DNA of 64,000 bases from Alistipes indistinctus YIT 12060. GTDB lineage: Bacteria > Bacteroidota > Bacteroidia > Bacteroidales > Rikenellaceae. The notes beneath the pieces were generated by a model. That model was not told where the DNA came from, searched no databases, and worked only from the letters and a program-made list of their open reading frames with translations. Positions 10,538 to 28,781 of this stretch are shown piece by piece (within the stretch, counting starts at the first letter, position 1; each line of letters opens with the position of its first letter). The translations under genes were made by a program, and so were the position numbers. The DNA lies in NCBI RefSeq assembly GCF_025144995.1, contig NZ_CP102250.1:930001-994000 (forward strand), written 5' to 3'.

Positions 10538-10613
10538 GCGGAAATAGCTCAGTTGGTAGAGCACAACCTTGCCAAGGTTGGGGTCGCGAGTTCGAGTCTC
10601 GTTTTCCGCTCCA
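10538..10613 (+). tRNA. tRNA-Gly (anticodon GCC)
   Basis: The full cloverleaf is visible. Acceptor GCGGAAA pairs with TTTCCGC, the D-arm is GCTC..GAGC, the anticodon stem CAACC/GGTTG encloses loop TTGCCAA with anticodon GCC at 10571-10573, and the T-arm is GCGAG TTCGAGT CTCGT. The discriminator is T and CCA is encoded at 10611-10613. The 3' end of this tRNA is the integration site of the adjacent island. Confidence 0.97.
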
Positions 10614-10691
10614 GAGGCTAAGACAGCGAAAGACGCTGTCGCGCCAAAATCAGACAAAAACCCTTTGAAACGATGTTTCAGAGGGTTTTTT
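10600..10691 (+). repeat. left attachment-site repeat (attL) at tRNA-Gly
   Basis: This 92-bp stretch is identical to 21242-21333 (constant offset 10,642). It begins within the last 14 bases of the tRNA and continues through a small hairpin (GACAGCG/CGCTGTC at 10622-10640) and the following terminator. Weaker homology continues past it because both copies are followed by related integrase regions. The true crossover core is probably only part of the 92 bp. Confidence 0.85.
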
Positions 10692-10692
10692 T
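10656..10692 (+). terminator. intrinsic terminator after tRNA-Gly
   Basis: The stem AAAAACCCTTTGAAAC / GTTTCAGAGGGTTTTT has one G-T wobble, a three-base loop GAT and a final run of seven T. It lies inside the attachment repeat, so it separates the tRNA transcript from the integrase gene. Confidence 0.88.
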
Positions 10693-10754
10693 ATGCCCTC
10701 TCCCAAGACATCGCAGGACATCGAAAAGCCATTTCCGGACAACTTGGTGTCCCC

Positions 10755-10823
10755 AAAGTGTCCCACTCGCGTGGTGCAACCTAAAAGTGGGACACTTTAG
10801 ACGTAAGAGGTGGGACACTTTAG
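10755..10823. repeat. three copies of GTGGGACACTTT upstream of the integrase
   Basis: GTGGGACACTTTAG occurs at 10787-10800 and 10810-10823 in direct orientation, and its inverse AAAGTGTCCCAC at 10755-10766. The same arrangement, slightly diverged, lies before the broken integrase at 21397-21464. Repeated short sites near an att site and integrase promoter suggest arm-type integrase sites, an excisionase site or an operator. Confidence 0.65.
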
Positions 10824-10912: not shown

Positions 10913-12145
10913 ATGAAAAGTACATTCAGAATCCTATTCCTTGCGAGGTGGGAATTGAAGAAAGAAAACGGTAAAGTGCCCCTATGCGCACGGATTACCA
11001 TTGACGGCGAAAAGGTAAAGTTCAGCCTCAAAGCTGAGATATTCGGAAACCACTGGGATCCAAAATCAGGTAGAGCCAAGGGGCAAACAAAAGAAGCCCT
11101 GCAATTAAACCGCTACCTTGATAGCATCAAGGGGCAAATGATCATGCATTATCATAACCTCTCGGAGGCTAATGAGATCGTGACTGCCGCGATGGTGCGG
11201 GATGCTTTTCTCGGCACGAATATCAAAAGCAATACGCTGCTGACCGTGTTCGAAGAATTCAACGACCGGCAGGAAAAATTGATCGGTATTGACATCGCCC
11301 AATCCACCTTTAACAAATATGATCTGACCTATCGACGGCTGAAGGAATTCCTGAAAGTCAAGATGCGGAAAAACGATATCCTGCTTTGCCAGGTTGATCG
11401 CAATTTCGTAATGGACTTTGAAACGTGGTTGAAAACCGAATATAAACTCGACACCAACTCCTCGGAGAAACTGATGCGGATATTCAAACGCATTACTACC
11501 ATGTGCTTCAAGAATGGCCAGATGCCGCGAGATCCATTTTGTGACCATAAACTCAAAAAAGTAAAGAAAGATCGCGGCTATCTGACCAGAACCGAACTGG
11601 AAAAGATTATCGATTTCAAACCCGATAGTAAGCGGCTCGAAAAGGTGCGCGACATCTTTCTGTTCTGCTGCTTTACCGGCTACGATTATTCGACAACTGC
11701 TGCCCTTACTGACAAGGAATTGGTCATGGACGATGATGGGCACGAATGGATCGACACCCATCGCATCAAAACAGGTACACCTTCAAAGGTCAAGCTTCTC
11801 GACATTCCTCTAACCATTTTGAAGAAGTACGAACTCAAGCGTGATGGCAATTACCTCCTCCCGGTAATGAGTAACGCCAAGTACAATCTATATCTGAAAG
11901 AAATTGCGGCAGCCTGCGGAATTGAAAAGCGTGTGACCTCGCATCTCGCTAGGCACACGTTCGCCACTACCGTTACTTACGCCAACGGGGTCTCTATCGA
12001 ATCCATCAGCAAGATGCTCGGCCATACTAAAATCAGCACCACCCAGATCTACGCCCGGATCGTCGACAAGACCATCAACGACGAGATGGACAAGCTGGCG
12101 CAAAAACTCGGAAACACGAAGTTCAGTCTTCAGGGAAACCGGTAA
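10913..12145 (+). CDS. tyrosine recombinase (site-specific integrase)
   Basis: A 410-residue integrase of the Bacteroidetes mobile-element type. Residues 1-90 form an arm-type DNA-binding domain, about 105-215 a SAM-like core-binding domain and about 230-400 the catalytic domain. Catalytic residues are visible: His344 and Arg347 in HLARHTFA, His371 in LGHTKIS and the nucleophile Tyr380 in TQIYARI. The usual first Arg is replaced in CCFTGYDYSTT, as is known for IntDOT-like Bacteroides integrases. It lies 299 bases after tRNA-Gly, reading away from it, the standard position for an element integrase. A closely related broken copy lies at 21522-22596. It probably excises and integrates the 10.6-kb element. 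Confidence 0.93.
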   Translation: MKSTFRILFLARWELKKENGKVPLCARITIDGEKVKFSLKAEIFGNHWDPKSGRAKGQTKEALQLNRYLDSIKGQMIMHYHNLSEANEIVTAAMVRDAFLGTNIKSNTLLTVFEEFNDRQEKLIGIDIAQSTFNKYDLTYRRLKEFLKVKMRKNDILLCQVDRNFVMDFETWLKTEYKLDTNSSEKLMRIFKRITTMCFKNGQMPRDPFCDHKLKKVKKDRGYLTRTELEKIIDFKPDSKRLEKVRDIFLFCCFTGYDYSTTAALTDKELVMDDDGHEWIDTHRIKTGTPSKVKLLDIPLTILKKYELKRDGNYLLPVMSNAKYNLYLKEIAAACGIEKRVTSHLARHTFATTVTYANGVSIESISKMLGHTKISTTQIYARIVDKTINDEMDKLAQKLGNTKFSLQGNR

Positions 12146-15000: not shown

Positions 15001-16866
15001 TTATCTTATTGAAACCAATGTTTCTAAATATCTTATATTTTCCGCTCTTGTTTTAGATTTGTAATTGAGACGCAGGCAGACATCTTCTATTTTCTGGCAA
15101 AAGATATCTGCAGAAAGCATAGACATTCTGAGTTCGTTATCTTCTCGGAAAGTCGTATGCCATTGCGCATTATCATCTAACGGATGTTCTGGCCTGAAGG
15201 GATTTATATTAAATATCTTATGGTCGATTTGTGTAATCCAAGAGGCTCCTACTTCTGTAATTGCACCCCATGATGCTTTTGTATTTTCACTTGTAACAAA
15301 AAGAACAAATATTTTTTGGGCCGAATAACTTTCAACAAAAAAATCTTTTAAATAGTCATAAACCGAACTACCTTCAGGGACTCTGCAAACTTCATCATCA
15401 CAGTTCGTGTACAAAATATCTTCTGCCGGTACATTATTGAACAATAGTAATTGGAAAATAATATCGGCGAGAGGTTTATCTTGATAGGTTTGGCTAATTA
15501 GAATCTTCTTTTTTTGTGAATTGACAATAGCTTTTAGACCTAAATCTGGAGCATTACTATTAATTGAGTCGGACACTGCTTTTTCAATCGTTTCGCGGGA
15601 AACATCGGCGCCTGCCTTTCGAATATTTTCCGCCGCACCTTTACTTGCATTATTACGAAAATCATCAATCTCTTTCTTCAGTTCTTCTTCTTTTTGCTTC
15701 AGATTCGCTTCTGCTGCTTTTTTCTTTTCTGCATTATTTAGATCTGTAAATATTTCCCTTTTCCTTAATATAGCCGGCAATAAATCTTTTCGAACATATT
15801 CCACTACCGCCTCATATCTCGGATCGTCCGATTTATACCCTTGACGATTACTCAAAGCCATATCGGGAAGTTCAGATAATTCGAATAAATCGACATGTAA
15901 TTGTCCAACGACGTAAACTTCATTCAGTTTGTTTTGTCCAACTATTGGTAATATATTAAATTCCCCCATTTTCTTATTAGCATACAGGGAAATAAAATTG
16001 TCAGGAAAATCTGTCATCTCGGCTTTCCGACCTCGTGTCGATCTATATGTACCGATCCAACCGACAATCTCAAGCGGGTATTCCCGGATCGTTCCTTCAT
16101 TGTTTTTTACAGATACCGATGTCCTAAACGGGGGACGAGACTCTATCAAATCATATCTTCTATCGGGAAATTCTGTCGGGACTAAATCGCATAAACTAGA
16201 ATATTCATCACCCAAAGATATAAGAGTATTCAGTTCATTCATAATATTTTCATCGAAACGATCGACAACCTCGTATTCTTGCCCTCTAATTATATGTATC
16301 TTAAAATCGCTACCGACTAAAGGAAAAATTTTCAATAGATTTCTCTTAACAGCATATAGTCCCTTGTGCAATCTATATTGTGGATTTTTCATAACGATAG
16401 CCGTTCCATGATTTTCAATCCGGCTAAATATAACATCGTTATCGTCTATCGCTTGTAGTTTATTGCCATCTATAGGCCTTCGGGCAAGAACGAATCCAGA
16501 TTTTTCTCCATTCTCAATAGTCAAAACATTGACACATTCAGAAACAGATAGTGCGGCAAGTTTACCGACTCCTTTTCGCCCCATTTTTTTGCGAGTTCCC
16601 GCCTTAGTGTATGAGTCGTCTTCTCCGATACGAGAAATCCCGGCAACATTCAAGAATTTATTTATGTCGCCTTTTTCATAAGACATTCCATGTCCGTCGT
16701 CTTCAACGCGAATATCGTCTTGATTGGAGATAATATATACATTTTCAGCATCTGCGTCGTATGCATTAGCGATAAGTTCGGCTAATACATAATATATATT
16801 CGAATATAAATTCGGACCCAATAATTCCAAGATACGAGGATCTACATTTAAGCTATATTCTTTCAT
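15001..16866 (-). CDS. GHKL (Hsp90/MutL-type) ATPase fused to a C-terminal TIR domain
   Basis: A 621-residue protein. Residues 1 to about 200 form a Bergerat ATP-binding fold: ELIANAYDADA (Glu30, Asn34, Asp37) is the N box, DDGHGM (57-61) the first glycine box, and GRKGVGK (96-102) the lid motif. A middle region runs to about 370, then an Ala/Lys/Glu-rich coiled-coil segment to about 430. From about 452 a TIR domain starts (KKILISQTYQDKPLAD), with DILYTNC, VPEGSSVYDYL and then TSENTKASW...TEVGASW. Glu538 sits at the catalytic Glu position of bacterial TIR NADases. Inference: ATP-dependent sensing or clamping coupled to NAD-depleting or signal-making TIR activity. It is co-directional with vsr (77 bases apart) and AT-rich like the rest of the cassette. 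Confidence 0.85.
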   Translation of the reverse strand: MKEYSLNVDPRILELLGPNLYSNIYYVLAELIANAYDADAENVYIISNQDDIRVEDDGHGMSYEKGDINKFLNVAGISRIGEDDSYTKAGTRKKMGRKGVGKLAALSVSECVNVLTIENGEKSGFVLARRPIDGNKLQAIDDNDVIFSRIENHGTAIVMKNPQYRLHKGLYAVKRNLLKIFPLVGSDFKIHIIRGQEYEVVDRFDENIMNELNTLISLGDEYSSLCDLVPTEFPDRRYDLIESRPPFRTSVSVKNNEGTIREYPLEIVGWIGTYRSTRGRKAEMTDFPDNFISLYANKKMGEFNILPIVGQNKLNEVYVVGQLHVDLFELSELPDMALSNRQGYKSDDPRYEAVVEYVRKDLLPAILRKREIFTDLNNAEKKKAAEANLKQKEEELKKEIDDFRNNASKGAAENIRKAGADVSRETIEKAVSDSINSNAPDLGLKAIVNSQKKKILISQTYQDKPLADIIFQLLLFNNVPAEDILYTNCDDEVCRVPEGSSVYDYLKDFFVESYSAQKIFVLFVTSENTKASWGAITEVGASWITQIDHKIFNINPFRPEHPLDDNAQWHTTFREDNELRMSMLSADIFCQKIEDVCLRLNYKSKTRAENIRYLETLVSIR

Positions 16867-16943: not shown

Positions 16944-17357
16944 TTATTGCTTTATTTCTTCGACCAACCTCTCCAATCGCTGTTTTCGACTTTCAATATT
17001 TTTTATCTCACATTGCCAGACGATCAATACTTTCCATTCGAGAGCTTCAATTTGCTCGATCTTTTTTCTATCTCGTATGATATTTCCTTCTAATTTTTCA
17101 TTCCAGTATGCTTCGTTCGATTGCGGTCTTCGTCCGGCACGACAATCGTGTCCATGCCAGAAGCAACCGTTTACGAATACTACTGTCTTATATTTAGGTA
17201 AAACAATATCTGGAGACCCGGGAAGCCTTCTGTCATTTTTACGATACCTGAACCCGGCTGCAAATAAATATTTCCGTACAACTAACTCTGGTTTCGTGTC
17301 TTTTTGATTTACCAGAGACATTATCTTAGAACGCGAGCTCTTATTCCAGATATCCAT
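16944..17357 (-). CDS. vsr: very short patch repair endonuclease (Vsr)
   Basis: A 137-residue Vsr-family endonuclease, the normal length. The family pattern is clear: DIWNKSSRSKIMS at the start, DTKPELVVRKYLFAAGFRYR, GSPDIVLPKYKTVVFVNGCFWHGHDC with the catalytic Asp of PDIV and the conserved His/Cys residues, and a later VLIVWQCEI strand. Vsr nicks next to T:G mismatches created by deamination of 5-methylcytosine, so it usually accompanies a cytosine-5 methyltransferase, as here: the methyltransferase gene is divergent 119 bases away. It is transcribed together with the GHKL-TIR gene. Confidence 0.95.
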   Translation of the reverse strand: MDIWNKSSRSKIMSLVNQKDTKPELVVRKYLFAAGFRYRKNDRRLPGSPDIVLPKYKTVVFVNGCFWHGHDCRAGRRPQSNEAYWNEKLEGNIIRDRKKIEQIEALEWKVLIVWQCEIKNIESRKQRLERLVEEIKQ

Positions 17358-17476: not shown

Positions 17477-18547
17477 ATGATACGGCGTAACGACATAGGT
17501 GTGGTCGATTTGTTTTGTGGGGTAGGTGGACTCAGCTTCGGAATGAAGAAACGAGGATTCAATATTATAGCAGGTTTCGATACGGATACGACATGTAAAT
17601 ATGCATACGAGACGAATAACGAATCGCAGTTTATTTCCCAGGATGTTCGTGAAGTAACAGGAGAGCAAATAAAAGCATTATTCGGCGATCATAAAATTAA
17701 GATATTAGCGGGGTGTGCACCCTGTCAACCTTTTTCTTCCTATGCATTTAAAGTCAAGAAAAAAGATCAGACGAAATATACACTATTATATCATTTCGGA
17801 AGGCTTATAAAAGAGGTCCAACCGGATATCGTTACGATGGAGAACGTTTCACAGATTTTATCTTTTAAACAAAAGCCGGTATTTAATGATTTTGTTGCAA
17901 AATTAGAAAGATTAGGATATAAAGTAAAGTACCAAGTCGTATACTGTCCTGATTATGGAATACCTCAAACTCGAAAAAGATTAGTCTTACTCGCTTCGAG
18001 ATTTGGAGAAATCGAACTTATAAAACCGACGCATACTCCTGATCAATATGTAACAGTGGAACAAACTATAGGCAATCTTCCTCCATTAGTCGCCGGAGAA
18101 ACCGATAAAAAGGATTCTTTGCACAGGGCTAGAGCTCTATCGCCATTAAATATGGAGCGTATGAGAGCCACACCTTATGGAGGAAGCTGGAAAGATTGGC
18201 CGATTCATTTACAGCTCGAATGTCATAAACGAGAATCGGGACAATCGTTCGGAAGCGTTTATGGAAGAATGAAATGGGACGCGCCGGCACCGACTATGAC
18301 AACGTTATGCACAGGCATCGGAAACGGCAGATTCGGACATCCTACTCAGGATCGAGCGATATCTTTACGCGAAGCCGCACTCTTCCAAACATTTCCTAAA
18401 GGATATAGCTTTTTCGCCCCAGACGAGAATATCTCTATCTCGAAAGCATCTCGTTATATCGGAAATGCAGTACCGCCAACCTTGGGCAAGATTACAGCAG
18501 ATAGTATTATTCGTCATTTAAAACGATTTAAACTTATCGATAAGTAA
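17477..18547 (+). CDS. DNA (cytosine-5-)-methyltransferase
   Basis: A 356-residue m5C methyltransferase. Motif I is DLFCGVGGLSFGM (residues 11-23), motif IV is GCAPCQPFS with catalytic Cys83, motif VI is MENVSQI, motif VIII is GIPQTRKRLVLLASR, and motif X is IGNAVPPTLGK at the C-terminus. The variable target-recognition region lies between motifs VIII and IX and does not reveal the recognised sequence by eye. Its neighbours Vsr and a possible nuclease make it the modification half of a putative restriction-modification system. The region is clearly more AT-rich than the flanking chromosome, consistent with transfer. Confidence 0.95.
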   Translation: MIRRNDIGVVDLFCGVGGLSFGMKKRGFNIIAGFDTDTTCKYAYETNNESQFISQDVREVTGEQIKALFGDHKIKILAGCAPCQPFSSYAFKVKKKDQTKYTLLYHFGRLIKEVQPDIVTMENVSQILSFKQKPVFNDFVAKLERLGYKVKYQVVYCPDYGIPQTRKRLVLLASRFGEIELIKPTHTPDQYVTVEQTIGNLPPLVAGETDKKDSLHRARALSPLNMERMRATPYGGSWKDWPIHLQLECHKRESGQSFGSVYGRMKWDAPAPTMTTLCTGIGNGRFGHPTQDRAISLREAALFQTFPKGYSFFAPDENISISKASRYIGNAVPPTLGKITADSIIRHLKRFKLIDK

Positions 18548-18592: not shown

Positions 18593-20236
18593 ATGATGCA
18601 AGATGCAGGAGCTGAATTAGTTGATATCATAAAATCGGAGAAGAACTTTATTGACAAAAAAATTGCGGTCAACAATACCCCATTTCTTTTTATAGATCTT
18701 ATTAAAGCCATTGATTACTATTGGCTTTGTCCATATGAAAATAAGGATAATTTTGAAGGTTTTATTCAATATGGATTTCCTGTTTTTTTAAAACAGTTCT
18801 ATTTGACTAGCAATTTTAAAGCGGATTCCCTCCCGATCCATCATTCTTCTTCCGATTCTTTGTCTTTTTGCCATTATTATTTATGGATGTATGGAAAATG
18901 CAAATTATTGGAGCGATATGTAAGACTAGCCTCTCAAAAGGAGGTTTCGATTGCGCGAAATACCCCTACCGAATTCACTATAGAGGCAGATTCATGTCAT
19001 TTAGAATATGTAGAGAATAGATCTCTTGATGAGTACTTTAAAGTAATCAGAGAGTCTGTTTTAAAAAATAAGATTGCGGATTTAGATAAAATTAATAACC
19101 TAATCCTCAAGTCTTTAGATAGCAGAGTAGAGGCCTGGAAAAAGGATTATATCAGATATGATAGCAGTCCGGATATTGACGATTATTATTATCAGACCGG
19201 ATATGTCGCACTGGCTACTTCTCAACTATATGACGACTTTAATGATGATTTCACATTCGGAAATATAACATACAAACACATATTAGATGTAATCCAATCC
19301 GTAATGGGAGTAGCTCTTAAACACATTGATGCATGTATGTTGTTATTAGATAAGTCTCCTCAAACGAAGATATACAATATTTTATCAATACCATTTTTGC
19401 CCGAGGAACTTTATTCCTCATATTCAAATTATTTGGGCATAGATAAGGATGAAGTAAAACAAATTTTTGATTTACTGATCGTTTCACCAGAAAATATCGA
19501 CGACCATTTGAGTTCCGAGAAGGATTTCTCTCCTCCGTTCATTAAGATTGGTAATAAATTTATATACAGATCGATTAAGGGGTGTTTGAGATCGCCTGTA
19601 TTATTTGTTCAAAATGAATTAAAACGAAAATATCCAAAGGACTATTTTCGATGGATTAATGAAAGAGAAAAGATTTTTAGAGACCAATTATACAACCTCT
19701 TTAGTTCGGATCGATTTATAAAAGTAAATAGAAATATCGAAATTAACTCGAATGGAATCAGAACCGATATAGATGCGGCGATATTCGACACACAAACAAA
19801 ATCTTTGAGTATATTCCAATTAAAATGGCAAGATAAATTTGCATCGGACATGCAGGCTAGAAAAAGCCGAATTGCAAATTTTTACCCCAAAGCTAAAGAA
19901 TGGATTGATAAAATCGATTCTTGGAAATCAGAAAATACTTCCAAGAACATACTCAGTGCCCTAAATATAAAAGGCAATGATATCTCTGTAATTTATTTAT
20001 TTGTTATAGGGCGATATAACACTCATTTCAGCAATCAAGAAATTGACAAACGTGCTGCGTGGGGGTCATGGTATCATGTTGTAGAACTAATGCATAAGAT
20101 CAGGACTAATTTCGACAATCCCGTTCAAGAGCTACATTTTAAATTGCAATTAGACTCTCCAATGAATAAAAAATTGGATGTTACTACGGAAAAGCTTGAA
20201 TTCTCAAACTATTTGATAACATGGAACTATAAATGA
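18593..20236 (+). CDS. uncharacterised protein with PD-(D/E)XK-like motif, putative restriction nuclease
   Basis: A 547-residue protein that I do not recognise as a whole. It is Lys-, Asp- and Ile-rich and AT-rich, with no signal peptide or membrane segment. Residues 392-412 read TDIDAAIFDTQTKSLSIFQLKW: an acidic residue on one strand (Asp392 or Asp394) followed after 14-16 residues by QLK, the pattern of a PD-(D/E)XK nuclease core with Gln in place of Glu. A basic segment (KRKYPKDYFRWINEREKIFRDQLYNLF) precedes it. It starts 45 bases after the methyltransferase stop on the same strand, where a restriction enzyme would be expected. The restriction role is inference from position and this short motif. 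Confidence 0.6.
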   Translation: MMQDAGAELVDIIKSEKNFIDKKIAVNNTPFLFIDLIKAIDYYWLCPYENKDNFEGFIQYGFPVFLKQFYLTSNFKADSLPIHHSSSDSLSFCHYYLWMYGKCKLLERYVRLASQKEVSIARNTPTEFTIEADSCHLEYVENRSLDEYFKVIRESVLKNKIADLDKINNLILKSLDSRVEAWKKDYIRYDSSPDIDDYYYQTGYVALATSQLYDDFNDDFTFGNITYKHILDVIQSVMGVALKHIDACMLLLDKSPQTKIYNILSIPFLPEELYSSYSNYLGIDKDEVKQIFDLLIVSPENIDDHLSSEKDFSPPFIKIGNKFIYRSIKGCLRSPVLFVQNELKRKYPKDYFRWINEREKIFRDQLYNLFSSDRFIKVNRNIEINSNGIRTDIDAAIFDTQTKSLSIFQLKWQDKFASDMQARKSRIANFYPKAKEWIDKIDSWKSENTSKNILSALNIKGNDISVIYLFVIGRYNTHFSNQEIDKRAAWGSWYHVVELMHKIRTNFDNPVQELHFKLQLDSPMNKKLDVTTEKLEFSNYLITWNYK

Positions 20237-20462: not shown

Positions 20463-20590
20463 AATACGGTGTACTTTAGTATATGCGACAAACATTTTCA
20501 CTTTATTCTCCTATTTCTTTATGTAACGATTGACTGAAGAATGGTTGTAAAGTGATTTGCATTAGATTTTCCGGTAAGCAATTTTGCAAA

Positions 20591-20953
20591 ATGGAGGTAA
20601 TAACTATTGAGTCGAAGGCTTTTAGGCAGCTGATGGAGAAACTGGATGCATTGTCCGATTATGTAAGTTCGTTGAAACCTCCGGTGGAGAATGAGGATGA
20701 AAGTTGGGTGGATAGTCACGATATCTGCGATTTCCTGAAGATAAGCGAACGGACACTGCAACGACTGAGGACGAATGGAAAGATTTCGTATACCAATCTC
20801 GGCGGGAAGTATTACTATCGGATCAGTCAGGTTAAAAAACTGCTGAAGGAGAACATAATTAAAAGTACCGAAGAACACTTCCATGAATTAGCTGAGCACC
20901 ATAAGCGCCATAGTTTCGACCGGGATCCCGAGAAAAACACCGCACTTAAGTAA
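20591..20953 (+). CDS. helix-turn-helix protein, excisionase/MerR-like
   Basis: A 120-residue small DNA-binding protein. The start MEVITIESKAFRQLMEKL matches a family common on Bacteroidetes mobile elements, so the inner start at 20591 is preferred over the longer frame from 20552. Residues about 43-85 form a winged HTH of the HTH_17 type (SHDICDFLKISERTLQRLRTNGKI, then YYRISQVKKLL). Such proteins serve as excisionases or regulators of element transfer. Its position near the right end of the element fits a role in excision or in controlling element genes. Confidence 0.82.
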   Translation: MEVITIESKAFRQLMEKLDALSDYVSSLKPPVENEDESWVDSHDICDFLKISERTLQRLRTNGKISYTNLGGKYYYRISQVKKLLKENIIKSTEEHFHELAEHHKRHSFDRDPEKNTALK

Positions 20954-21080: not shown

Positions 21081-21241
21081 CATTGTAAACCGAAGAAAAA
21101 CAGTCTTGGCGAGGTTAACCACCGTCAGAAATAGGTTTCGGTAAATGTCCCCACTGGTGTCTCATTATGCAAGTTGAACCCAGTGAAGTCAAAGGGAAGT
21201 CATTGATGAGCAATACATAAGGAAGGCGGAGGTCAGACTCC

Positions 21242-21333
21242 CGTTTTCCGCTCCAGAGGCTAAGACAGCGAAAGACGCTGTCGCGCCAAAATCAGACAAA
21301 AACCCTTTGAAACGATGTTTCAGAGGGTTTTTT
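21242..21333 (+). repeat. right attachment-site repeat (attR)
   Basis: A perfect 92-bp copy of 10600-10691, starting with the last 14 bases of the tRNA-Gly 3' end and containing the same hairpin and terminator. No complete tRNA precedes it: only a T-arm-like fragment is seen, so this is a junction and not a second tRNA gene. Confidence 0.85.
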
Positions 21334-21396
21334 CATGCCTTCTCCGAAGACTTCGCAAGACATCCGAAAGCCGTTTTCAGACACCTTGGCATCCCA

Positions 21397-21464
21397 AAAG
21401 TGTCCCCACCGGTTCGATATGAACCTAAAATGGGACACTTTGAGAAAAAAGGTGGGACACTTAG
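21397..21464. repeat. diverged copies of the GTGGGACACTTT motif
   Basis: AAAGTGTCCCCAC (from 21397), TGGGACACTTTGAG (21431-21444) and GTGGGACACTTAG (21452-21464) repeat the order and orientation seen before the intact integrase. Their conservation while the integrase decayed supports a real binding site. Confidence 0.6.
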
Positions 21465-21521
21465 GCTTTTTTCAAACTGTTCTTCAACGATTTACCTAAT
21501 CTGAATAACAGGTAAACAGTT

Positions 21522-22596
21522 ATGAAAAGCACATTCAGAATCTTATTCCTCGCGAGGTGGGAATTGAAGAAAAAAATGGCAAGGTGCCCCTCTGCGCACG
21601 GATTACCATCGACGGCGAAAGAGTGAAGTTCAGCCTCAAAAGCGAGGTAACCGCAAAAATCTGGGACCCGAAGTCCGGCAGAGCAACAGTACAGACAAAA
21701 GAGGCACTTCAGCTCAACCGCTATCTCGACAGCATCAAGGGGCAAATGATATGCACTATCATAGCCTCTCGGAAGCTAACGAAGTCGTGACTGCCTCGAT
21801 GATGCGGGGTGCTTTCCTCGGCACGAATATCAAAAGCAATACGCTGCTGACCGTGTTCGAGGAATTCAACGACCGACAGGAAAAACTAATCGGCATCGAC
21901 CTCGCTCAGTCCACTTTCAATAAGTATGACCTGACCTACCGTCGGCTCAAGGAATTCTTGAAAGTCAAAATGCAGAAGAACGATATTTTGCTCTACCAAT
22001 TAGATCGGAATTTCGTTATAGATTTTGAGACATACCTGAAAACCGAGTATAAGCTGGATACAAACTCTTCCGAAAAGCTGATGCGGATTTTCAAGCGCAT
22101 CACGACTATGTGCTTCAAGAACGGCCAGATGTCTAAAGATCTCTTCTGTGACCACAAACTCAAAAAAGTCAAGAAAGATCGCGGGTATCTCACCAAAGCA
22201 GAACTTGAAAGTATCATCGACTATAAGCCGGATAACAAGCGTCTCGAAAAAGTTCGCGACATTTTCCTGTTTTGCTGCTTTACCGGCTACGATTATTCCA
22301 CTACCGCCGCCCTGACCGACAAAGATTTGGTCGCCGACGATGACGGCGCCCTCTGGATCGATACCCACCGGATAAAGACCAAAACTGCGGCAAAGGTCAA
22401 ACTCCTCGATATTCCGCTATCCATCATCAAAAAGTACGAGCGTAAACGGGACAGCATTTTTTTACTGCCGGTTATGAGTAACGCCAAGTATAATTTCTAC
22501 CTGAAAGAGATTGCAAGTATCTGTGGAATAGAGAAAAACGTCACCTCGCATCTTGGCCGGCACACTAACTACTTAACAGAGTTAAGAGTTCTGTAG
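21522..22596 (+). pseudogene. broken tyrosine recombinase, relative of the intact integrase
   Basis: The nucleotide sequence tracks the intact integrase (10913-12145) closely from its ATG. A one-base deletion near 21549 shifts the frame, and a second near 21749 shifts it again. Homology stops abruptly at about 22565, just after HLGRHT, where sequence unlike the integrase begins and a stop follows at 22594. The second catalytic His and the nucleophile Tyr are therefore lost and the protein cannot act as a recombinase. It marks the left end of an older, mostly deleted element. Confidence 0.9.
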
Positions 22597-22653: not shown

Positions 22654-25212
22654 TTATTCCGCCTTGACGCACCGTAAACTCATAGCGGAAGCTTTCGAAC
22701 TCTCAAGTTGCTGAGCATTAGCTGTACCTATCAGATACCACATATTCCCAGTGTCGGAAGCCGAGGCCGTCAACAGGGCCGCGCACTGTCCAGCTTCTAT
22801 AAGTTCTCCGTCGAAAGAATATTTGTATCCGGCGCCCGGCACAAAAATGGACGCATTCCGGCGGGGACTGTTCGTTGACGGGTTGAAGAACAGCGTGCCT
22901 ATGTAGGCTATGTCTTTGGTGCCCCATGCCACGGCCGTATTGCCTTCCCTGACATCATACCCATTTACGCCTGGCCCTACATAGGGGTTATTGTGAGCTC
23001 TCCGGTCAAAAAAACCGTCCGCATAAAAGCCCCATCTCATATTGCCGTTTGATTGATTCCCCCCAATGGGAGGGTTGGCGTACAAAGACTGCCTGATCTC
23101 CGAATTGGATATATTTGATGCCGAGTTATTCAACGCGACTGCAGAAGTCGAACCGTCGTTCGGCCGGCGGTACCCCGGGGGGCAAGTTTCGTATGTATTT
23201 TTTATACTCTCCCAAAAGTTTGGGTTTGTTTGAGACAACCACCCTGTCGGTACCGTCGTAATGTCGACATTATAAGCACGTCGCGGGTAGATAAGAGGTG
23301 CCCATTGATAGAGCGCTCCGGCCTGTGAAGGATAATCCGTGAACGCGGCATTCGACAGATTTCCCAGGATATCGGTATAAATACTGGAATTGGCCATATC
23401 TGATGCCGTGGCATTGTAGGCGGAAAAACGCACAGCCGATAGACCGCGACTGTTATCGTTAGGATGCATCAGGTAGTCGGCCTCTTCCCCCTGCCGTATA
23501 AATATTACATGATATTTTTGGGGAGACCCGTAACGCAGCAACACCAAAGCATAGCGGACAGGGACGGCAGTGGTAGGCGTATAGGTGGAGGTCAGGCCTA
23601 TGCGGAAAGAAATATAGTTGCCGGTTCCGCTGACAACGCTTCCTGAGGCCGAAGACAAATGCCCGGAAACGATGAAAGTGGCGTCATTGGCCGGCAAAAG
23701 CATATCGGCCGGAGTTTCAGTGCTGCGGTTATAGGTTATGCCCGCATCGTCGGAATCCTCCGTACTGAATACGATATCACCCGCGCTCCATCCGTCGCCC
23801 AGCCAGAATACCGATGCATCCCAGCTTCCCGCGAGCAATGATGAACTGACAGGTATGCGTATGATACGCTCCCCTTTCTGATTGTTTTTCCAGTATGCTC
23901 CGACGTATTGATCGTGGATATAGCTGGCGTGTATCACTGATGACGCATAGTCGGGCAGTTGCACAAGGTTGATTTTTATGTCCGTATCGTCCGTATTGAC
24001 AATGGTCCCGGTTATTTCGTTCGTCGTACTGTTGTTAGAGGTGGGTTTCCATGCATAGAGCGTCGTCGTTCCCGATCCGCTGTAAGAGCCAATGACCGGA
24101 ATGGTTCCGTCCAGGTTTTTCACATTGGCGGCAGTAAGCGTTCCGGCCGCCCAGCCCTGCAGGTCGGCGAGGTTGTCGCAAATATAGAAATTGGTGCCCG
24201 CTATGGTCCAGGCCTTGGGAGACTCGTTTTGCACGATCACGTTGAACTGCGAGAACCCTCCCATAGGCGGAAGAACAATTTTTTCCGGGGTAAGCATAAT
24301 GATGGCATCGGGGGATACGGATAAACTGTAATTGATACGCTGCCCGGGCGACCATGTAATTCCGCTCAGGTCGAACTCAACATCCGGACGCCCGTCATCG
24401 ACACCCACGATCAGCCTGGCGCCGGTCGGGAGAGTCTGCGGAATCATCATCAAGTAACCGCCGCCGGTATTGACCAGCTGCGACGAAGGATCCAGGTATA
24501 CATCCGTATCCACCGTGGCTTCAAAATTTCCTGTGGAGGAGGAAGCGATATTCCATGAGAATGTTCCGTCAGCATTGGTTGTCAAGATGCCGTCGATCTT
24601 AACTCCCTGTATTTCAAGCTTAATTATTTGCTGTCCGTTGCCAGAAGCCTTGAATCCGATGCATGTCAGGGCGTGCCTCATCTGAAAATTGACAGGTGCA
24701 GAGCCGTTATTGGTTTTGTTGCGGTCTGCCACAAGAGCCGAAACCATTAGATCAGGCTGGTCGGAGCAGTTCGTGGGAACGGTATAGCTGATAGTCGGAA
24801 TGCCTGTAGTAACATTTGGAGTTATCCCGTTAGCAGCGGCAGCGTGGGGCGAATAGGCGAAAAAGCTAATATTCGCATCCGCGGCCTGAGGCCAGTAGGC
24901 CGGATTGTCGTAGGTCCAGGAGCCGCTGTTGTGGGAAACCTTCACGTTATTCATAAAATCAGGGGTCGCTGTCGCTCCGTTCGCCCCCCAGTTATTGGAG
25001 GTTCCGTTGCCGGTATAATATGCAAATACTCCCATATCCGGGATGTCCGCTACCGATTCCACCGGCATTCCGCGGGTGAAGGCATCACCCGGGTTACCAA
25101 TGAAACCGATCCTGCCGTCACCGTACCCGTAGCCTTCCATTTCGTTTTTAGTACAGGACACAGCTGCAACAGCTGCGGTCAAGCTTATTATTATAAATCG
25201 GATAGTATTCAT
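22654..25212 (-). CDS. large fimbrillin-family lipoprotein (Mfa-like)
   Basis: About 852 residues. The start at 25212 (MNTIRFIIISL) is preferred because it gives a clean signal peptide with a lipobox at AVSC. The N-terminal third resembles fimbrillins (GRIGFIGN, then DMGVFAYYTG and YWPQAADANISFFAYSPH). A middle region (PPMGGFSQFNVIVQNESPKAWTI) resembles the Ig-like BACON or fimbrial domains of Bacteroidetes surface proteins. The C-terminal portion has CPPGYRRPNDG and ends in SLRCVK, typical of tip or adhesin subunits. It is much longer than a shaft fimbrillin (about 300-400 residues), so it is probably a tip or anchor adhesin. It is the last gene of a four-gene leftward cluster. Confidence 0.8.
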   Translation of the reverse strand: MNTIRFIIISLTAAVAAVSCTKNEMEGYGYGDGRIGFIGNPGDAFTRGMPVESVADIPDMGVFAYYTGNGTSNNWGANGATATPDFMNNVKVSHNSGSWTYDNPAYWPQAADANISFFAYSPHAAAANGITPNVTTGIPTISYTVPTNCSDQPDLMVSALVADRNKTNNGSAPVNFQMRHALTCIGFKASGNGQQIIKLEIQGVKIDGILTTNADGTFSWNIASSSTGNFEATVDTDVYLDPSSQLVNTGGGYLMMIPQTLPTGARLIVGVDDGRPDVEFDLSGITWSPGQRINYSLSVSPDAIIMLTPEKIVLPPMGGFSQFNVIVQNESPKAWTIAGTNFYICDNLADLQGWAAGTLTAANVKNLDGTIPVIGSYSGSGTTTLYAWKPTSNNSTTNEITGTIVNTDDTDIKINLVQLPDYASSVIHASYIHDQYVGAYWKNNQKGERIIRIPVSSSLLAGSWDASVFWLGDGWSAGDIVFSTEDSDDAGITYNRSTETPADMLLPANDATFIVSGHLSSASGSVVSGTGNYISFRIGLTSTYTPTTAVPVRYALVLLRYGSPQKYHVIFIRQGEEADYLMHPNDNSRGLSAVRFSAYNATASDMANSSIYTDILGNLSNAAFTDYPSQAGALYQWAPLIYPRRAYNVDITTVPTGWLSQTNPNFWESIKNTYETCPPGYRRPNDGSTSAVALNNSASNISNSEIRQSLYANPPIGGNQSNGNMRWGFYADGFFDRRAHNNPYVGPGVNGYDVREGNTAVAWGTKDIAYIGTLFFNPSTNSPRRNASIFVPGAGYKYSFDGELIEAGQCAALLTASASDTGNMWYLIGTANAQQLESSKASAMSLRCVKAE

Positions 25213-25294
25213 AACCGTGTCTATTTTTAAATCTTTAGTGACCGGAAGAGGTATCACCCTCTTCCGGCCTGTGTTACCAAAACGTCTCCTTTAT

Positions 25295-26212
25295 TTATGG
25301 CTGGGGAAGTTCGGGATCGGGCGTCACAGCAGTCCAATCTTCAGCAATGGAAGACTCGAATTCGATTATATTGAAGATCGGATCCGTTCCGCCGCCGTGC
25401 GAATCGGCGTCAATAATCATCTTCAACAAATAATGCTTGCCTTTTTCGAACTCATCGGCGGGGATATTGCCAGTCGCAATCGTATACTGCTGCAGATCGC
25501 CACTGTAGATTGTGGTTCCGTTTTTCGTTATCGTTATGCCGGCTGTAATCTTCACTTTACATCCTACCGAACTTTGCGGCATAATCATGTAAGAAGCTGC
25601 TCCTGCATAGGTTGCAGACGTTGAATTAGGAGAGGCCCATGCGGGAGTAGTGGCCGTCGGATCGATTGTTCCTCCTGTCGATTGAACATCCAGACTGGCA
25701 GTAAGCCCTGTTGTGCTGAGTTGGTAGCCAGCATCTGACAAGTCATCATGCAATTGGGCTGTAACGGTGATCTTGGCCAACATATGGGAAAAAGCCAAAC
25801 CTACAGTGCCGGAAGTCAGGCCCAGTTGAGGAGCGGCAATGGTAAAATCCTTGTTGGCATTTGCTGGAACTTCATAGGCGATTGAGAGAGCCGGATACGC
25901 TCCGGTCGCCGCAACGTCTGCCGGAGCCCATGCGTAAAAATCCACACTGCCGGAAGCGGGCCAGTAGTAAGGGCCACCGCTGGGGACATCGCTTGCGCTT
26001 ACCTGATCGTTGATAAACCAGCCTGTCCCACCACTCCAGGCTGCATAAACCCGGTAAGGATCGTTCCCATCGTTTGCGGCACGGGTCAATTTGTCGTTAA
26101 GGTTGGTAAATTTGATCTGCTTCGGAGTGAATCCGTCAACGTTTTCCTGTTCGTTTTTCGAACAGCCTGCTAATATGGCTGCCGCGGCCAAAGCCATTAA
26201 GATTTTTTTCAT
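25295..26212 (-). CDS. fimbrillin-family lipoprotein
   Basis: A 305-residue protein with signal peptide and lipobox (AAAAILAGCSKNE). The mature part shows fimbrillin features: IKFTNLNDKLTRAA near the N-terminus, where a protease-processed Arg site is known in related pilins, PYYWPASGSVDFYAWAP, and the AFSHMLAKITVTA segment. It is probably a pilus shaft or accessory subunit polymerised by donor-strand exchange after processing, as known for FimA/Mfa1-type V pili. It lies between the DUF5119 gene and the large fimbrillin, with gaps of 167 and 82 bases. Confidence 0.85.
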   Translation of the reverse strand: MKKILMALAAAAILAGCSKNEQENVDGFTPKQIKFTNLNDKLTRAANDGNDPYRVYAAWSGGTGWFINDQVSASDVPSGGPYYWPASGSVDFYAWAPADVAATGAYPALSIAYEVPANANKDFTIAAPQLGLTSGTVGLAFSHMLAKITVTAQLHDDLSDAGYQLSTTGLTASLDVQSTGGTIDPTATTPAWASPNSTSATYAGAASYMIMPQSSVGCKVKITAGITITKNGTTIYSGDLQQYTIATGNIPADEFEKGKHYLLKMIIDADSHGGGTDPIFNIIEFESSIAEDWTAVTPDPELPQP

Positions 26213-26379
26213 TTTGATTCGAATTATGTGTTGTTCGCTAATCTTTTAAAATTTCGTTTTCTTTATTTTCACTTTCGCCTTGCAAAGGTGAAAATTAGGA
26301 GTATTCCCCTGTCCGGTCGGTAATCGCTTTTTTCTACTTTATCACGTTTAAACAATATTATTTATTGATAACCACTATC

Positions 26380-27441
26380 TTATTTCGATGTTAAGGGTAC
26401 ATCTATCACATCCCAATCGATAAGCTCCGAGTCAAAACCGGAACCTCCTCCCTCGGGCTCCACATCGGGCAGCCGCTCGGGCAAGTCCACCTCCACTTCG
26501 AGAGCCGTCGCCCCATGCTGCCCCGGCAGATACCGGATCAGCCCGGTAACATTCGCCTGCTGGTGCACAACGGTCCGGTCCCTGTCCTTCAAGATGAAGA
26601 AAAAGTCCATTGCGATCTGACGGTCGGGCTGGGGAGTAAGCGACGAGGGCTGTTGGCCCGGGATCCCGAACGTGCGGACAGTGGTTGAAATCGTACCTGC
26701 CGTGGTCGAGCCGGGGTTATAGGTTCTGTTGTTTATGGTGAACTGCTGGCTAACGGCCTGCAGTGTACTCCTGTCCCCGCTGAAATTATAGGCCCCCGCC
26801 ATCCCGTTCAAATCGATCAGTGCCGGCATACGAGCATTATTCAAACCCTCCACATGGACAGTGACATTCAATTCGTGCACCTTACGTTCGGGTATCAATC
26901 CTACCAGGGCTTCGATGGATTCCTGCATCCCCGGAGAAGGCGTCTGCCCTTCTGGATTCTGGGTATACCTGACCATTGCACAACTCACTTCGAAATCACG
27001 TACCGTAACCGAAGCCAGGATATCCGGTTCGTAAACGTACGGAACATCGCCCGACCTTAACGGTACGGTGGGGTTGGAATTGATCGTGGCGTACGCTTCG
27101 AGTGTCGACAGATTCTCATATCCGCGTATACCGACCCCATATAGCTGTCCCCGGATCTCATTGAAAACGACAACCGTGTAGGCCCCTTCGGGCACATAGG
27201 CATAGGTCTGTATCCGGTTGGCGCTGTTTTCAAACCGGTGTTCCAGAACCAATTTGCCGTCATTTTTGCTGTAAAACAATGCGGTTACGTTTTGCGGGGC
27301 TATACCGGCTTTCTCCCACAGCGTTCCCATGGGGATAACGGCACGCAGACCCACCACTTCTTCAATAGGGCGGCGGCAACTGCAGAAGAGCAGTGCGACG
27401 GCCAGCATCAATACTGTATATTCATTGTATATGCGTTTCAT
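26380..27441 (-). CDS. DUF5119 domain lipoprotein of a fimbrial locus
   Basis: A 353-residue protein with an N-terminal signal peptide ending in a lipobox (LLFCSC). The pattern IPMGTLWEKAG, ALFYSKNDGKLVLEH and AYVPEGAYTVVVFNEI is that of DUF5119 proteins, which accompany fimbrillin genes in Bacteroidales. The exact role is not established; a pilus assembly or anchoring role fits the context. The gene begins 11 bases after the DUF3575 gene stop, so the two are very likely cotranscribed. Confidence 0.8.
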   Translation of the reverse strand: MKRIYNEYTVLMLAVALLFCSCRRPIEEVVGLRAVIPMGTLWEKAGIAPQNVTALFYSKNDGKLVLEHRFENSANRIQTYAYVPEGAYTVVVFNEIRGQLYGVGIRGYENLSTLEAYATINSNPTVPLRSGDVPYVYEPDILASVTVRDFEVSCAMVRYTQNPEGQTPSPGMQESIEALVGLIPERKVHELNVTVHVEGLNNARMPALIDLNGMAGAYNFSGDRSTLQAVSQQFTINNRTYNPGSTTAGTISTTVRTFGIPGQQPSSLTPQPDRQIAMDFFFILKDRDRTVVHQQANVTGLIRYLPGQHGATALEVEVDLPERLPDVEPEGGGSGFDSELIDWDVIDVPLTSK

Positions 27442-27452
27442 TATTCGCTTTC

Positions 27453-28781
27453 TTACTTGCGGTAACCGCGGTTAATCATCCATACCAGGGATACCTTCAA
27501 TTGGGTCGGACCAACCCAGTGGAAGTTCCCCCGGTTCTTGAGAATAAGGTGCCACTGATCGTCCTCTCCGCATTTTTTGGCAGTGTATTCCCTGTACTTG
27601 CTTCCCATATATCCTAAACCGAGCGAATACTCCATCCGCCAGTTTTTGCTGATGCTGTGGGCAAAACCTCCGGTAATACCCGCTGAAACAAACTCGCCCT
27701 GATATCCTTTTGTCTTCCATTCCACATCATAATAACCACCGCCCGCATATAGACCCGTAAACCATCCCGTCATTTGACTGCGTCCTGTACGCTCACCCCA
27801 CCAGTAACGCAATTCCAGGTTCCCGTTCAGCACTTCCAGGGCGTGTTGTTTTTTTTCCCAAAGCCACCACGGGAACACCCATTCCGTAGCCAATGACCAG
27901 CGCTGCCCCATAGGTATTTCGATACCGGCATTGACCGCAGCTCCTAAATCGTACAGAAGGTTGGTTTTTATCGCAAAAAGCGGCTTGCGTGCCATTGTCG
28001 TCAACGATGGGATTGACAAGGTGTCGCTCGGATCGTTTACCGGATCAGTGCCAGCTTCCGGCACCACCACCTGCCCGGGAAAATCAATAGTCGTTTCTAT
28101 CGCGGTACTGTCTGGCGGGACGGGTACTGTGACAAACTCTTCCTGTTGCTGTGCTTTTTCGGGATTTTCTTCCTTTAAGTAGAATACAACGCTTGTTCCC
28201 GACCGCATAAGCCTTGCAAAGTTGCGTGTCAGGTAATTCTCTGTTGCGCCGCCGCCCAGACGCTTTATCTGAATGAACTTCGATTCTTCATCAAGCGGCA
28301 TCGAAAGTATGCGCAGAAGATCATCCCTGTATGGAACCATCCTGTCAAGTCGGACCTGTTCGAAAAGGTAGCCCCAATTGATAACCGACGGTTTTATAAA
28401 TATTTTCTGTTCATTCAACTCCACATCGGGGAATTTCCATCGGATATGACTTCTTACCGCCATGGCACGTTCGTACGATAAGCGTGAATTGGTCCGGAAC
28501 GATCCGATAAGGGACGAGCTTCCTTCGATGACAATGGAATCCAGTGCGGAGCTAACCGTTATATCCCGGAGTATTTCTTCCAGTTTATTCAATTCGGCCT
28601 GGTTGGTGCGGTACTCCCGCATCAGAAGCGAACTGTTGTTGGCAAAATAAAATACCGCAGTCAATGTATCCTGCCGGTGCCCAGGAGACGCGGCATAGCT
28701 GTAGTTTGTCGCCCCAAAAAACAGCGTCATCGAGGCAAACATGAGCGTGCGCCATAATATATATCTGTTCAATCTGTTCAT
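27453..28781 (-). CDS. DUF3575 outer-membrane protein with OmpA-like N-terminal half
   Basis: 442 residues with a signal peptide. The first half has FYFANNSSLLMREYRTNQAEL and VIEGSSSLIGSF...RLSYERAMAVRSHI, which resembles a periplasmic OmpA-type peptidoglycan-binding fold. The second half (from about residue 270) is the DUF3575 beta-barrel: FAIKTNLLYDLGAAVNAGIEIP, WWLWEKK and RYWWGER, ending in a strand-like LKVSLVWMINRGYRK. DUF3575 proteins are first genes in many Bacteroidales fimbrial loci and are thought to anchor or export subunits. It is the first gene of the cluster, facing the regulator gene across 483 bases. Confidence 0.82.
   Translation of the reverse strand: MNRLNRYILWRTLMFASMTLFFGATNYSYAASPGHRQDTLTAVFYFANNSSLLMREYRTNQAELNKLEEILRDITVSSALDSIVIEGSSSLIGSFRTNSRLSYERAMAVRSHIRWKFPDVELNEQKIFIKPSVINWGYLFEQVRLDRMVPYRDDLLRILSMPLDEESKFIQIKRLGGGATENYLTRNFARLMRSGTSVVFYLKEENPEKAQQQEEFVTVPVPPDSTAIETTIDFPGQVVVPEAGTDPVNDPSDTLSIPSLTTMARKPLFAIKTNLLYDLGAAVNAGIEIPMGQRWSLATEWVFPWWLWEKKQHALEVLNGNLELRYWWGERTGRSQMTGWFTGLYAGGGYYDVEWKTKGYQGEFVSAGITGGFAHSISKNWRMEYSLGLGYMGSKYREYTAKKCGEDDQWHLILKNRGNFHWVGPTQLKVSLVWMINRGYRK

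What the first reader, a model, noticed from the sequence alone, without database searches (positions are those of the whole stretch)
18593..20236. Unrecognised 547-aa partner of the methyltransferase with a possible PD-(D/E)XK core
TDIDAAIF...SIFQLKW fits a nuclease core with Gln for Glu. It sits where a type II restriction enzyme should be, but the rest of the protein matches nothing I know.
Basis: inference. Interest (0 to 1): 0.6.

Follow-up and report, generated by a model that had tools for sequence, protein, structure and literature searches.

The report
Optional nuclease-like gene beside DNA methylase
A gene next to a bacterial DNA-methylating enzyme very probably encodes a DNA-cutting enzyme of a family that databases do not yet name, but comparison with relatives suggests an optional add-on to the defence locus, not the methylase's fixed partner.

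Summary
The ORF and motif are real. Window 18593-20236 (+) is an intact 547-aa gene ("X") with TDID(391-394)...QLKW(409-412). In ten homologues T391, D392, D394, D399, L405, Q409, L410, K411 and an upstream Arg358-Glu359 are invariant: 8 of 22 invariant residues fall in 21 positions. This is the E-D-QxK signature of a PD-(D/E)XK nuclease. Support beyond the motif is modest: a weak, in-register profile match to Pfam DUF234, and a low-confidence alpha-beta-beta-beta-alpha model whose fold searches named nothing useful. X passes no curated cut-off in Pfam or NCBIfam and has no convincing match in PADLOC, PHROGs or the PDB.

"Type II enzyme of this methyltransferase" is not supported. The m5C methylase is linked to Vsr and a GHKL-ATPase-TIR protein whose N-terminus matches the BbrUII/HgiDII restriction family. 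Relatives of this unit occur without X (2 of 2 read). So do Dcm-GHKL-receiver operons and a Dcm-ATPase-Vsr operon. X also sits beside an EcoRII-C enzyme, and in 3 of 9 independent loci with no cytosine methylase nearby. My reading: X is a modular accessory DNase recruited repeatedly to m5C/Vsr loci, here cargo of a ~10.6-kb element in tRNA-Gly. Activity and target are untested.

The parts
18593..20236 (+). X: 547-aa protein, helical N-terminal ~330 aa of unknown fold plus C-terminal PD-(D/E)XK-like core
   Evidence: ORF; homologues; no passing family match
19610..20116 (+). core segment of X, residues 340-508, predicted alpha-beta-beta-beta-alpha at low confidence
   Evidence: pLDDT 44.8, pTM 0.41
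19763..19828 (+). catalytic-motif segment, residues 391-412 (TDID...QLKW)
   Evidence: 8 of 22 invariant columns of the family
19664..19669 (+). Arg358-Glu359 of the helix before the core, candidate first metal-binding acid
   Evidence: invariant in 10 of 10 homologues
17477..18547 (+). C5-cytosine DNA methyltransferase (Dcm type)
   Evidence: PF00145 7.8e-63; TIGR00675 2e-42
16944..17357 (-). Vsr mismatch endonuclease
   Evidence: PF03852 7.8e-36; TIGR00632 6.6e-43
15001..16866 (-). GHKL ATPase with C-terminal TIR domain; N-terminal 410 aa match the BbrUII/HgiDII restriction family below its cut-off
   Evidence: PF13589; spbK TIR, residues 380-560, 5.6e-18; NF050001 217.6 bits against a cut-off of 550
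20552..20953 (+). HTH_17 excisionase-like protein of the carrier element
   Evidence: PF12728 1.5e-9
10913..12145 (+). tyrosine integrase of the carrier element
   Evidence: PF00589, PF13102, PF17293
10594..10764 (+). left attachment-site repeat, overlapping the 3' end of tRNA-Gly (10538-10613)
21236..21406 (+). right attachment-site repeat, 91% identical to the left one

Best explanation
X is a metal-dependent DNA endonuclease of a new PD-(D/E)XK family (E359, D394, Q409-x-K411, perhaps D392). It is an optional defence effector, not the dedicated restriction enzyme of the neighbouring methylase. I infer that the conserved helical N-terminal ~330 aa senses or selects the target and that the C-terminal core cuts. 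The gene has been plugged repeatedly into m5C/Vsr loci built on different ATPases, where a DNase adds a second line of attack on foreign DNA, and it also exists without a linked methylase. Shown: motif invariance, rarity, modular distribution, purifying selection in rhizobial-type copies. Inferred: nuclease fold and activity, the role of the N-terminal part, the trigger.
For: Motif invariance and clustering. Best profile-profile match to DUF234, in register TDID..QLKW with vEFD..GECKW: above 150 of 150 and 200 of 200 column shuffles and 196 of 200 five-column block shuffles; independently the same segment of L001's X scores on PF03008 at E 0.016. Modular context: Dcm in 6 of 9 and Vsr in 5 of 9 independent X loci, neither in 3 of 9. 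None of the 10 X queries hits any of nine related methylase/ATPase loci read (L025-L029, L031, L032, L050, L051), while all 10 hit each of the two X-bearing controls.
Against: No confident structure; the Foldseek and VIA rows shown hold no PD-(D/E)XK enzyme that I recognise. No PDB sequence match. Mrr_cat and NERD profiles do not beat shuffles (62 and 59 of 150 reach the observed score). Gln in place of Glu in the xK motif could also mean an altered or lost activity. Only ten sequences, three of them near-identical. The Dcm and Vsr counts have no measured background.
Confidence: 0.6

Rival explanations
1. X is the cognate type II restriction endonuclease of the Dcm methyltransferase, and the GHKL-TIR protein is a separate layer.
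For: X lies 45 nt downstream of Dcm on the same strand. In L001 it follows the receiver-like gene and precedes Vsr with overlapping ends. Nuclease genes occur in the neighbourhoods of receiver-like genes in the literature (PMC8011034, section 8).
Against: Dcm + GHKL-TIR units without X: G230 (66/66/57% identical Dcm/GHKL/Vsr) and Listeria (50/50%). X beside a full EcoRII-C enzyme. X without a cytosine methylase in 3 of 9 loci. The GHKL protein is itself related to a named restriction family.
Confidence: 0.15
2. X is a type IV-like, modification-dependent nuclease that cuts foreign DNA carrying modified cytosine and is kept compatible with the local m5C pattern.
For: It exists without a linked methylase yet is often next to m5C methylase and Vsr genes; the QxK variant is recalled as typical of Mrr-like type IV enzymes (recall, no call).
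Against: No profile similarity to Mrr_cat above shuffles; no recognised methyl-binding domain; a type IV enzyme next to an active m5C methylase would have to ignore that mark.
Confidence: 0.15
3. X is not an active nuclease; the conserved segment is a DNA-binding or structural relic of a PD-(D/E)XK fold.
For: Gln for Glu in the xK motif; low-confidence model; no fold match.
Against: D392, D394, Q409, K411 and E359 are invariant in 10 of 10 homologues as low as 21% identical to P0001, which a relic would not be expected to keep.
Confidence: 0.1

Closest known systems
Pfam PF03008 DUF234 (C-terminal part of ATPase proteins; recalled as PD-(D/E)XK-like)
   Same: In-register motif (x-D-x-D...QLKW against vEFD...GECKW); four members from related genomes keep an E-D-ExK pattern; best of seven alignments compared with the core.
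   Different: Only 16.0 bits against a cut-off of 22.5, in one X homologue of ten; X lacks the N-terminal ATPase and has Gln for Glu.
BbrUII/HgiDII-type restriction-modification (NCBIfam NF050001) and paraMORC4 GHKL-TIR (Iyer et al. 2008, PMC2292703)
   Same: The window's own Dcm + GHKL + Vsr set; the TIR extension of a GHKL protein in restriction-modification loci is already described there (passages).
   Different: X is not part of that description in the passages and section I read; the window GHKL scores 217.6 against a cut-off of 550 and ends in TIR.
HEF_HK / Response_reg_2 restriction-modification loci (Bellieny-Rabelo et al. 2021, PMC8011034)
   Same: L001 carries X inside such an operon: Dcm, HEF_HK GHKL, Response_reg_2, X, Vsr.
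   Different: Two other such operons read have no X; the X family is not named in the passages and section I read.

Membership tests
PD-(D/E)XK nuclease superfamily | acid in the first helix, then D...(E/Q)xK on adjacent strands, conserved | tested here: met
   E359, D392/D394, Q409 and K411 invariant in 10 of 10
PD-(D/E)XK nuclease superfamily | alpha-beta-beta-beta-alpha-beta core with these residues together | tested here: inconclusive
   fragment model has H349-369, E374-385, E388-399, E404-415, then helices, but pLDDT 44.8; fold searches unhelpful
PD-(D/E)XK nuclease superfamily | statistical match to a known family | tested here: inconclusive
   DUF234 above column shuffles, 4 of 200 block shuffles reach it; Mrr_cat and NERD not above shuffles
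PD-(D/E)XK nuclease superfamily | metal-dependent DNA cleavage | not testable with these tools
   bench assay needed
Type II restriction enzyme cognate to the adjacent Dcm | gene linked to its methylase | tested here: not met
   met in the window, but 3 of 9 independent X loci have no Dcm in the stretch read
Type II restriction enzyme cognate to the adjacent Dcm | the methylase unit lacks another restriction candidate and does not occur without X | tested here: not met
   GHKL-TIR present; units without X in L025 and L026
Type II restriction enzyme cognate to the adjacent Dcm | cuts the site that the Dcm protects | not testable with these tools
   neither recognition site known
Pfam DUF234, Mrr_cat or NERD membership | score over the Pfam gathering cut-off | tested here: not met
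   no family over cut-off for any of 10 members
BbrUII/HgiDII restriction family (for the GHKL neighbour) | score over the NF050001 cut-off | tested here: not met
   217.6 bits against 550, residues 4-410 only
paraMORC4 GHKL-TIR (for the GHKL neighbour) | GHKL ATPase with C-terminal TIR | tested here: met
paraMORC4 GHKL-TIR (for the GHKL neighbour) | Hx[ST]xD motif of the TIR (PMC2292703) | tested here: not met
   window reads QTYQD; the 66% identical L026 reads HASRD

The most novel reading that the evidence does not exclude
X is a transferable DNase cartridge that docks onto at least three different ATPase-based m5C/Vsr defence chassis (GHKL-TIR, HEF_HK-GHKL plus receiver-like protein, HerA-like ATPase). 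The chassis ATPase licenses it when modification fails, so in this element a DNase and a TIR NAD-degrading effector answer to one methylation sensor.
Probability: 0.2. Interest if true: 0.65.

Novelty: new variant of a known kind. Interest (0 to 1): 0.4.

Why it matters
It adds an unnamed nuclease family to the defence catalogue. It also corrects an easy misreading: in GHKL-type m5C restriction loci the conspicuous unknown gene next to the methylase need not be the restriction enzyme. The pattern of presence and absence across chassis makes the question of what X adds testable by deleting one gene.

Tried and rejected
I did not use the first. Fold searches of the second gave coat proteins, COMMD, cystatin-like and capping proteins (PDB Foldseek E 0.018 or worse, VIA Z 5.8 or less, viral library E 8.4e-3 or worse) and no PD-(D/E)XK enzyme that I recognise in the rows shown; I treat this as uninformative.

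Mrr and NERD kinship: rejected as unsupported. DUF234 kinship: kept as a lead only. The weak 47-residue match in G756 (E 8.4e-4) was not counted as a homologue.

Viral contigs: four scans found no relative. Phage collection: one unannotated contig (MT836369.1), whose gene order equals that of the Shinella plasmid, so I treat it as probable bacterial DNA.

Paper searches (Vsr, GHKL, receiver; paraMORC, TIR; Vsr, HerA; HEF_HK) showed no description of X in the listings, passages and sections seen. I did not read any paper whole. No genome-wide background rate for Dcm or Vsr was measured, so the association counts carry no p-value.

Full report
Observation. The ORF at 18593-20236 (+) is open for 547 aa; the reverse strand is full of stops. 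It starts 45 nt after the stop of a C5-cytosine methyltransferase (17477-18547, PF00145 E 7.8e-63; spacing).

Annotation. X has no hit in Pfam, PADLOC or NCBIfam at E <= 1 and none in PDB sequences by phmmer at E <= 10. Scanning ten homologues gave only weak hits, each in one or two members, in Pfam, PADLOC, NCBIfam and PHROGs. A profile of the whole family hits only unrelated proteins in the PDB, in its N-terminal part and at low significance (best E 0.008), and a profile of the core hits none.

Homologues. Found: a Dysgonamonadaceae MAG (L001, 61% identity); G166; G700, G429 and G672; plasmids of Shinella, Sinorhizobium fredii GR64 (two records of one strain), Rhizobium SRDI969 and Rhizobium TAL182; and one contig filed as phage. 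The family is rare: besides the window's own genome, 1 of 394 others in the phylum sample, 4 of 394 in the class sample, none full-length in 294 of the order sample and none in 100 of the family sample. The TAL182 copy is split by an IS66-family element.

Conservation. In ten sequences, the others 21-61% identical to the window's, 22 columns are invariant and 8 of them are in residues 391-411 (p 2.5e-7; permutation over all 21-residue windows 3e-5). R358-E359 in the helix before the core is invariant too. dN/dS is 0.13-0.16 among the Shinella, S. fredii and phage-filed copies.

Fold. With the two rows that the predictor accepts, the full-length model is useless (pLDDT 32.6). The 340-508 fragment gives helix 349-369, strands 374-385, 388-399 and 404-415, then helices, at pLDDT 44.8. 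That is the expected order for a PD-(D/E)XK half-core, but the confidence is too low to count as proof, and Foldseek, VIA-align and the viral library returned nothing useful. Profile-profile comparison of residues 335-520 against seven alignments (DUF234, Mrr_cat, NERD, Vsr, Dcm, GHKL, integrase) gave the highest core score to DUF234 (21.2; the other six 11.2-14.4), in register with its D...ECKW. None of 150 and none of 200 column shuffles reached it, 4 of 200 block shuffles did, and the full-length profile still aligns there first. Mrr_cat and NERD are at shuffle level.

Context. I scanned stretches around X for Dcm and Vsr profiles, counting Shinella, S. fredii and the phage-filed contig as one locus type. 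Of 9 independent loci, 6 have Dcm (window, L001, TAL182, S. fredii type, SRDI969, G700) and 5 have Vsr (all of these except G700). G166, G429 and G672 have neither in about 9 kb on each side. G700's contig begins 1.1 kb before X, so it is only partly read. In L001 the ends of X overlap those of its neighbours, and in S. fredii X is the last gene of a row Dcm, 677 aa, 503 aa, 1820-aa ATPase, Vsr, X.

Is X the restriction enzyme? Three tests say no. First, homologues of the window's unit without X: G230 has Dcm-GHKL-TIR-Vsr at 66, 66 and 57% identity, and Listeria has Dcm-GHKL-TIR at 50%. Second, two Dcm-GHKL-receiver operons and the R. leguminosarum Dcm-677-503-ATPase-Vsr operon lack X. tblastn with all ten X proteins gives no hit in any of nine such X-less loci, while all ten hit both controls. 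Third, SRDI969 has X together with Dcm, Vsr and an EcoRII-C endonuclease. The likely restriction or effector protein of the window's unit is the GHKL-TIR protein, whose first 410 aa match NCBI's BbrUII/HgiDII restriction family below cut-off and whose C-terminus matches the SpbK TIR. M.HgiDII is a GTCGAC m5C methylase (passages of PMC5867850). GHKL-TIR proteins in restriction-modification loci were described as paraMORC4 (PMC2292703, passages and section 4). The Glu of TEVGASW in the TIR is conserved in 3 of 3; its catalytic role is recalled.

Carrier. The 3' end of tRNA-Gly plus about 150 nt is repeated at 21236-21406 (91%), and a broken second integrase follows. The four defence genes are AT-rich (GC 0.32-0.39) against 0.43-0.49 for the integrase stretch and 0.58-0.62 for the left flank. 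The unit is therefore cargo of a ~10.6-kb integrative element next to the remnant of a second one.

Mechanism. I commit to an accessory metal-dependent DNase with a helical targeting part. Conservation and distribution are shown; fold, activity, trigger and target are inferred.

Noticed in passing
window 10594-10764 and 21236-21406; 10913-12145 and 21521-22596: Attachment-site repeats at tRNA-Gly and a broken second integrase copy: two related integrative elements in tandem; three tyrosine recombinase genes in a row (10913, 12314, 13664).
   Followed up: partly
window 15001-16866 (-): GHKL ATPase whose N-terminal part matches a restriction family and whose C-terminus is a TIR domain with the Hx[ST]xD motif changed to QTYQD; full-length relatives in G230 (66%) and Listeria (50%).
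   Followed up: partly
L030:7305-19986 (-) and L050:12585-23452 (+): Dcm, 677-aa, 503-aa, ~1820-aa ATPase, Vsr gene row in rhizobia, with and without X; the 677- and 503-aa proteins have no Pfam or PADLOC name beyond weak hits.
   Followed up: no
L007:4508-8555: X of Rhizobium TAL182 is interrupted by an IS66-family element.
   Followed up: yes
L008 (MT836369.1): Contig filed as phage whose gene order equals that of the Shinella plasmid; probably bacterial DNA.
   Followed up: partly
L025 (NZ_CP030101.1): A 2.9-Mb Listeria record, evidently a chromosome, is filed as a plasmid in PLSDB.
   Followed up: no
window 22654-28781 (-): Fimbrillin-like cluster (Mfa_like_1 twice, DUF5119, DUF3575) directly downstream of the element remnant.
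   Followed up: no
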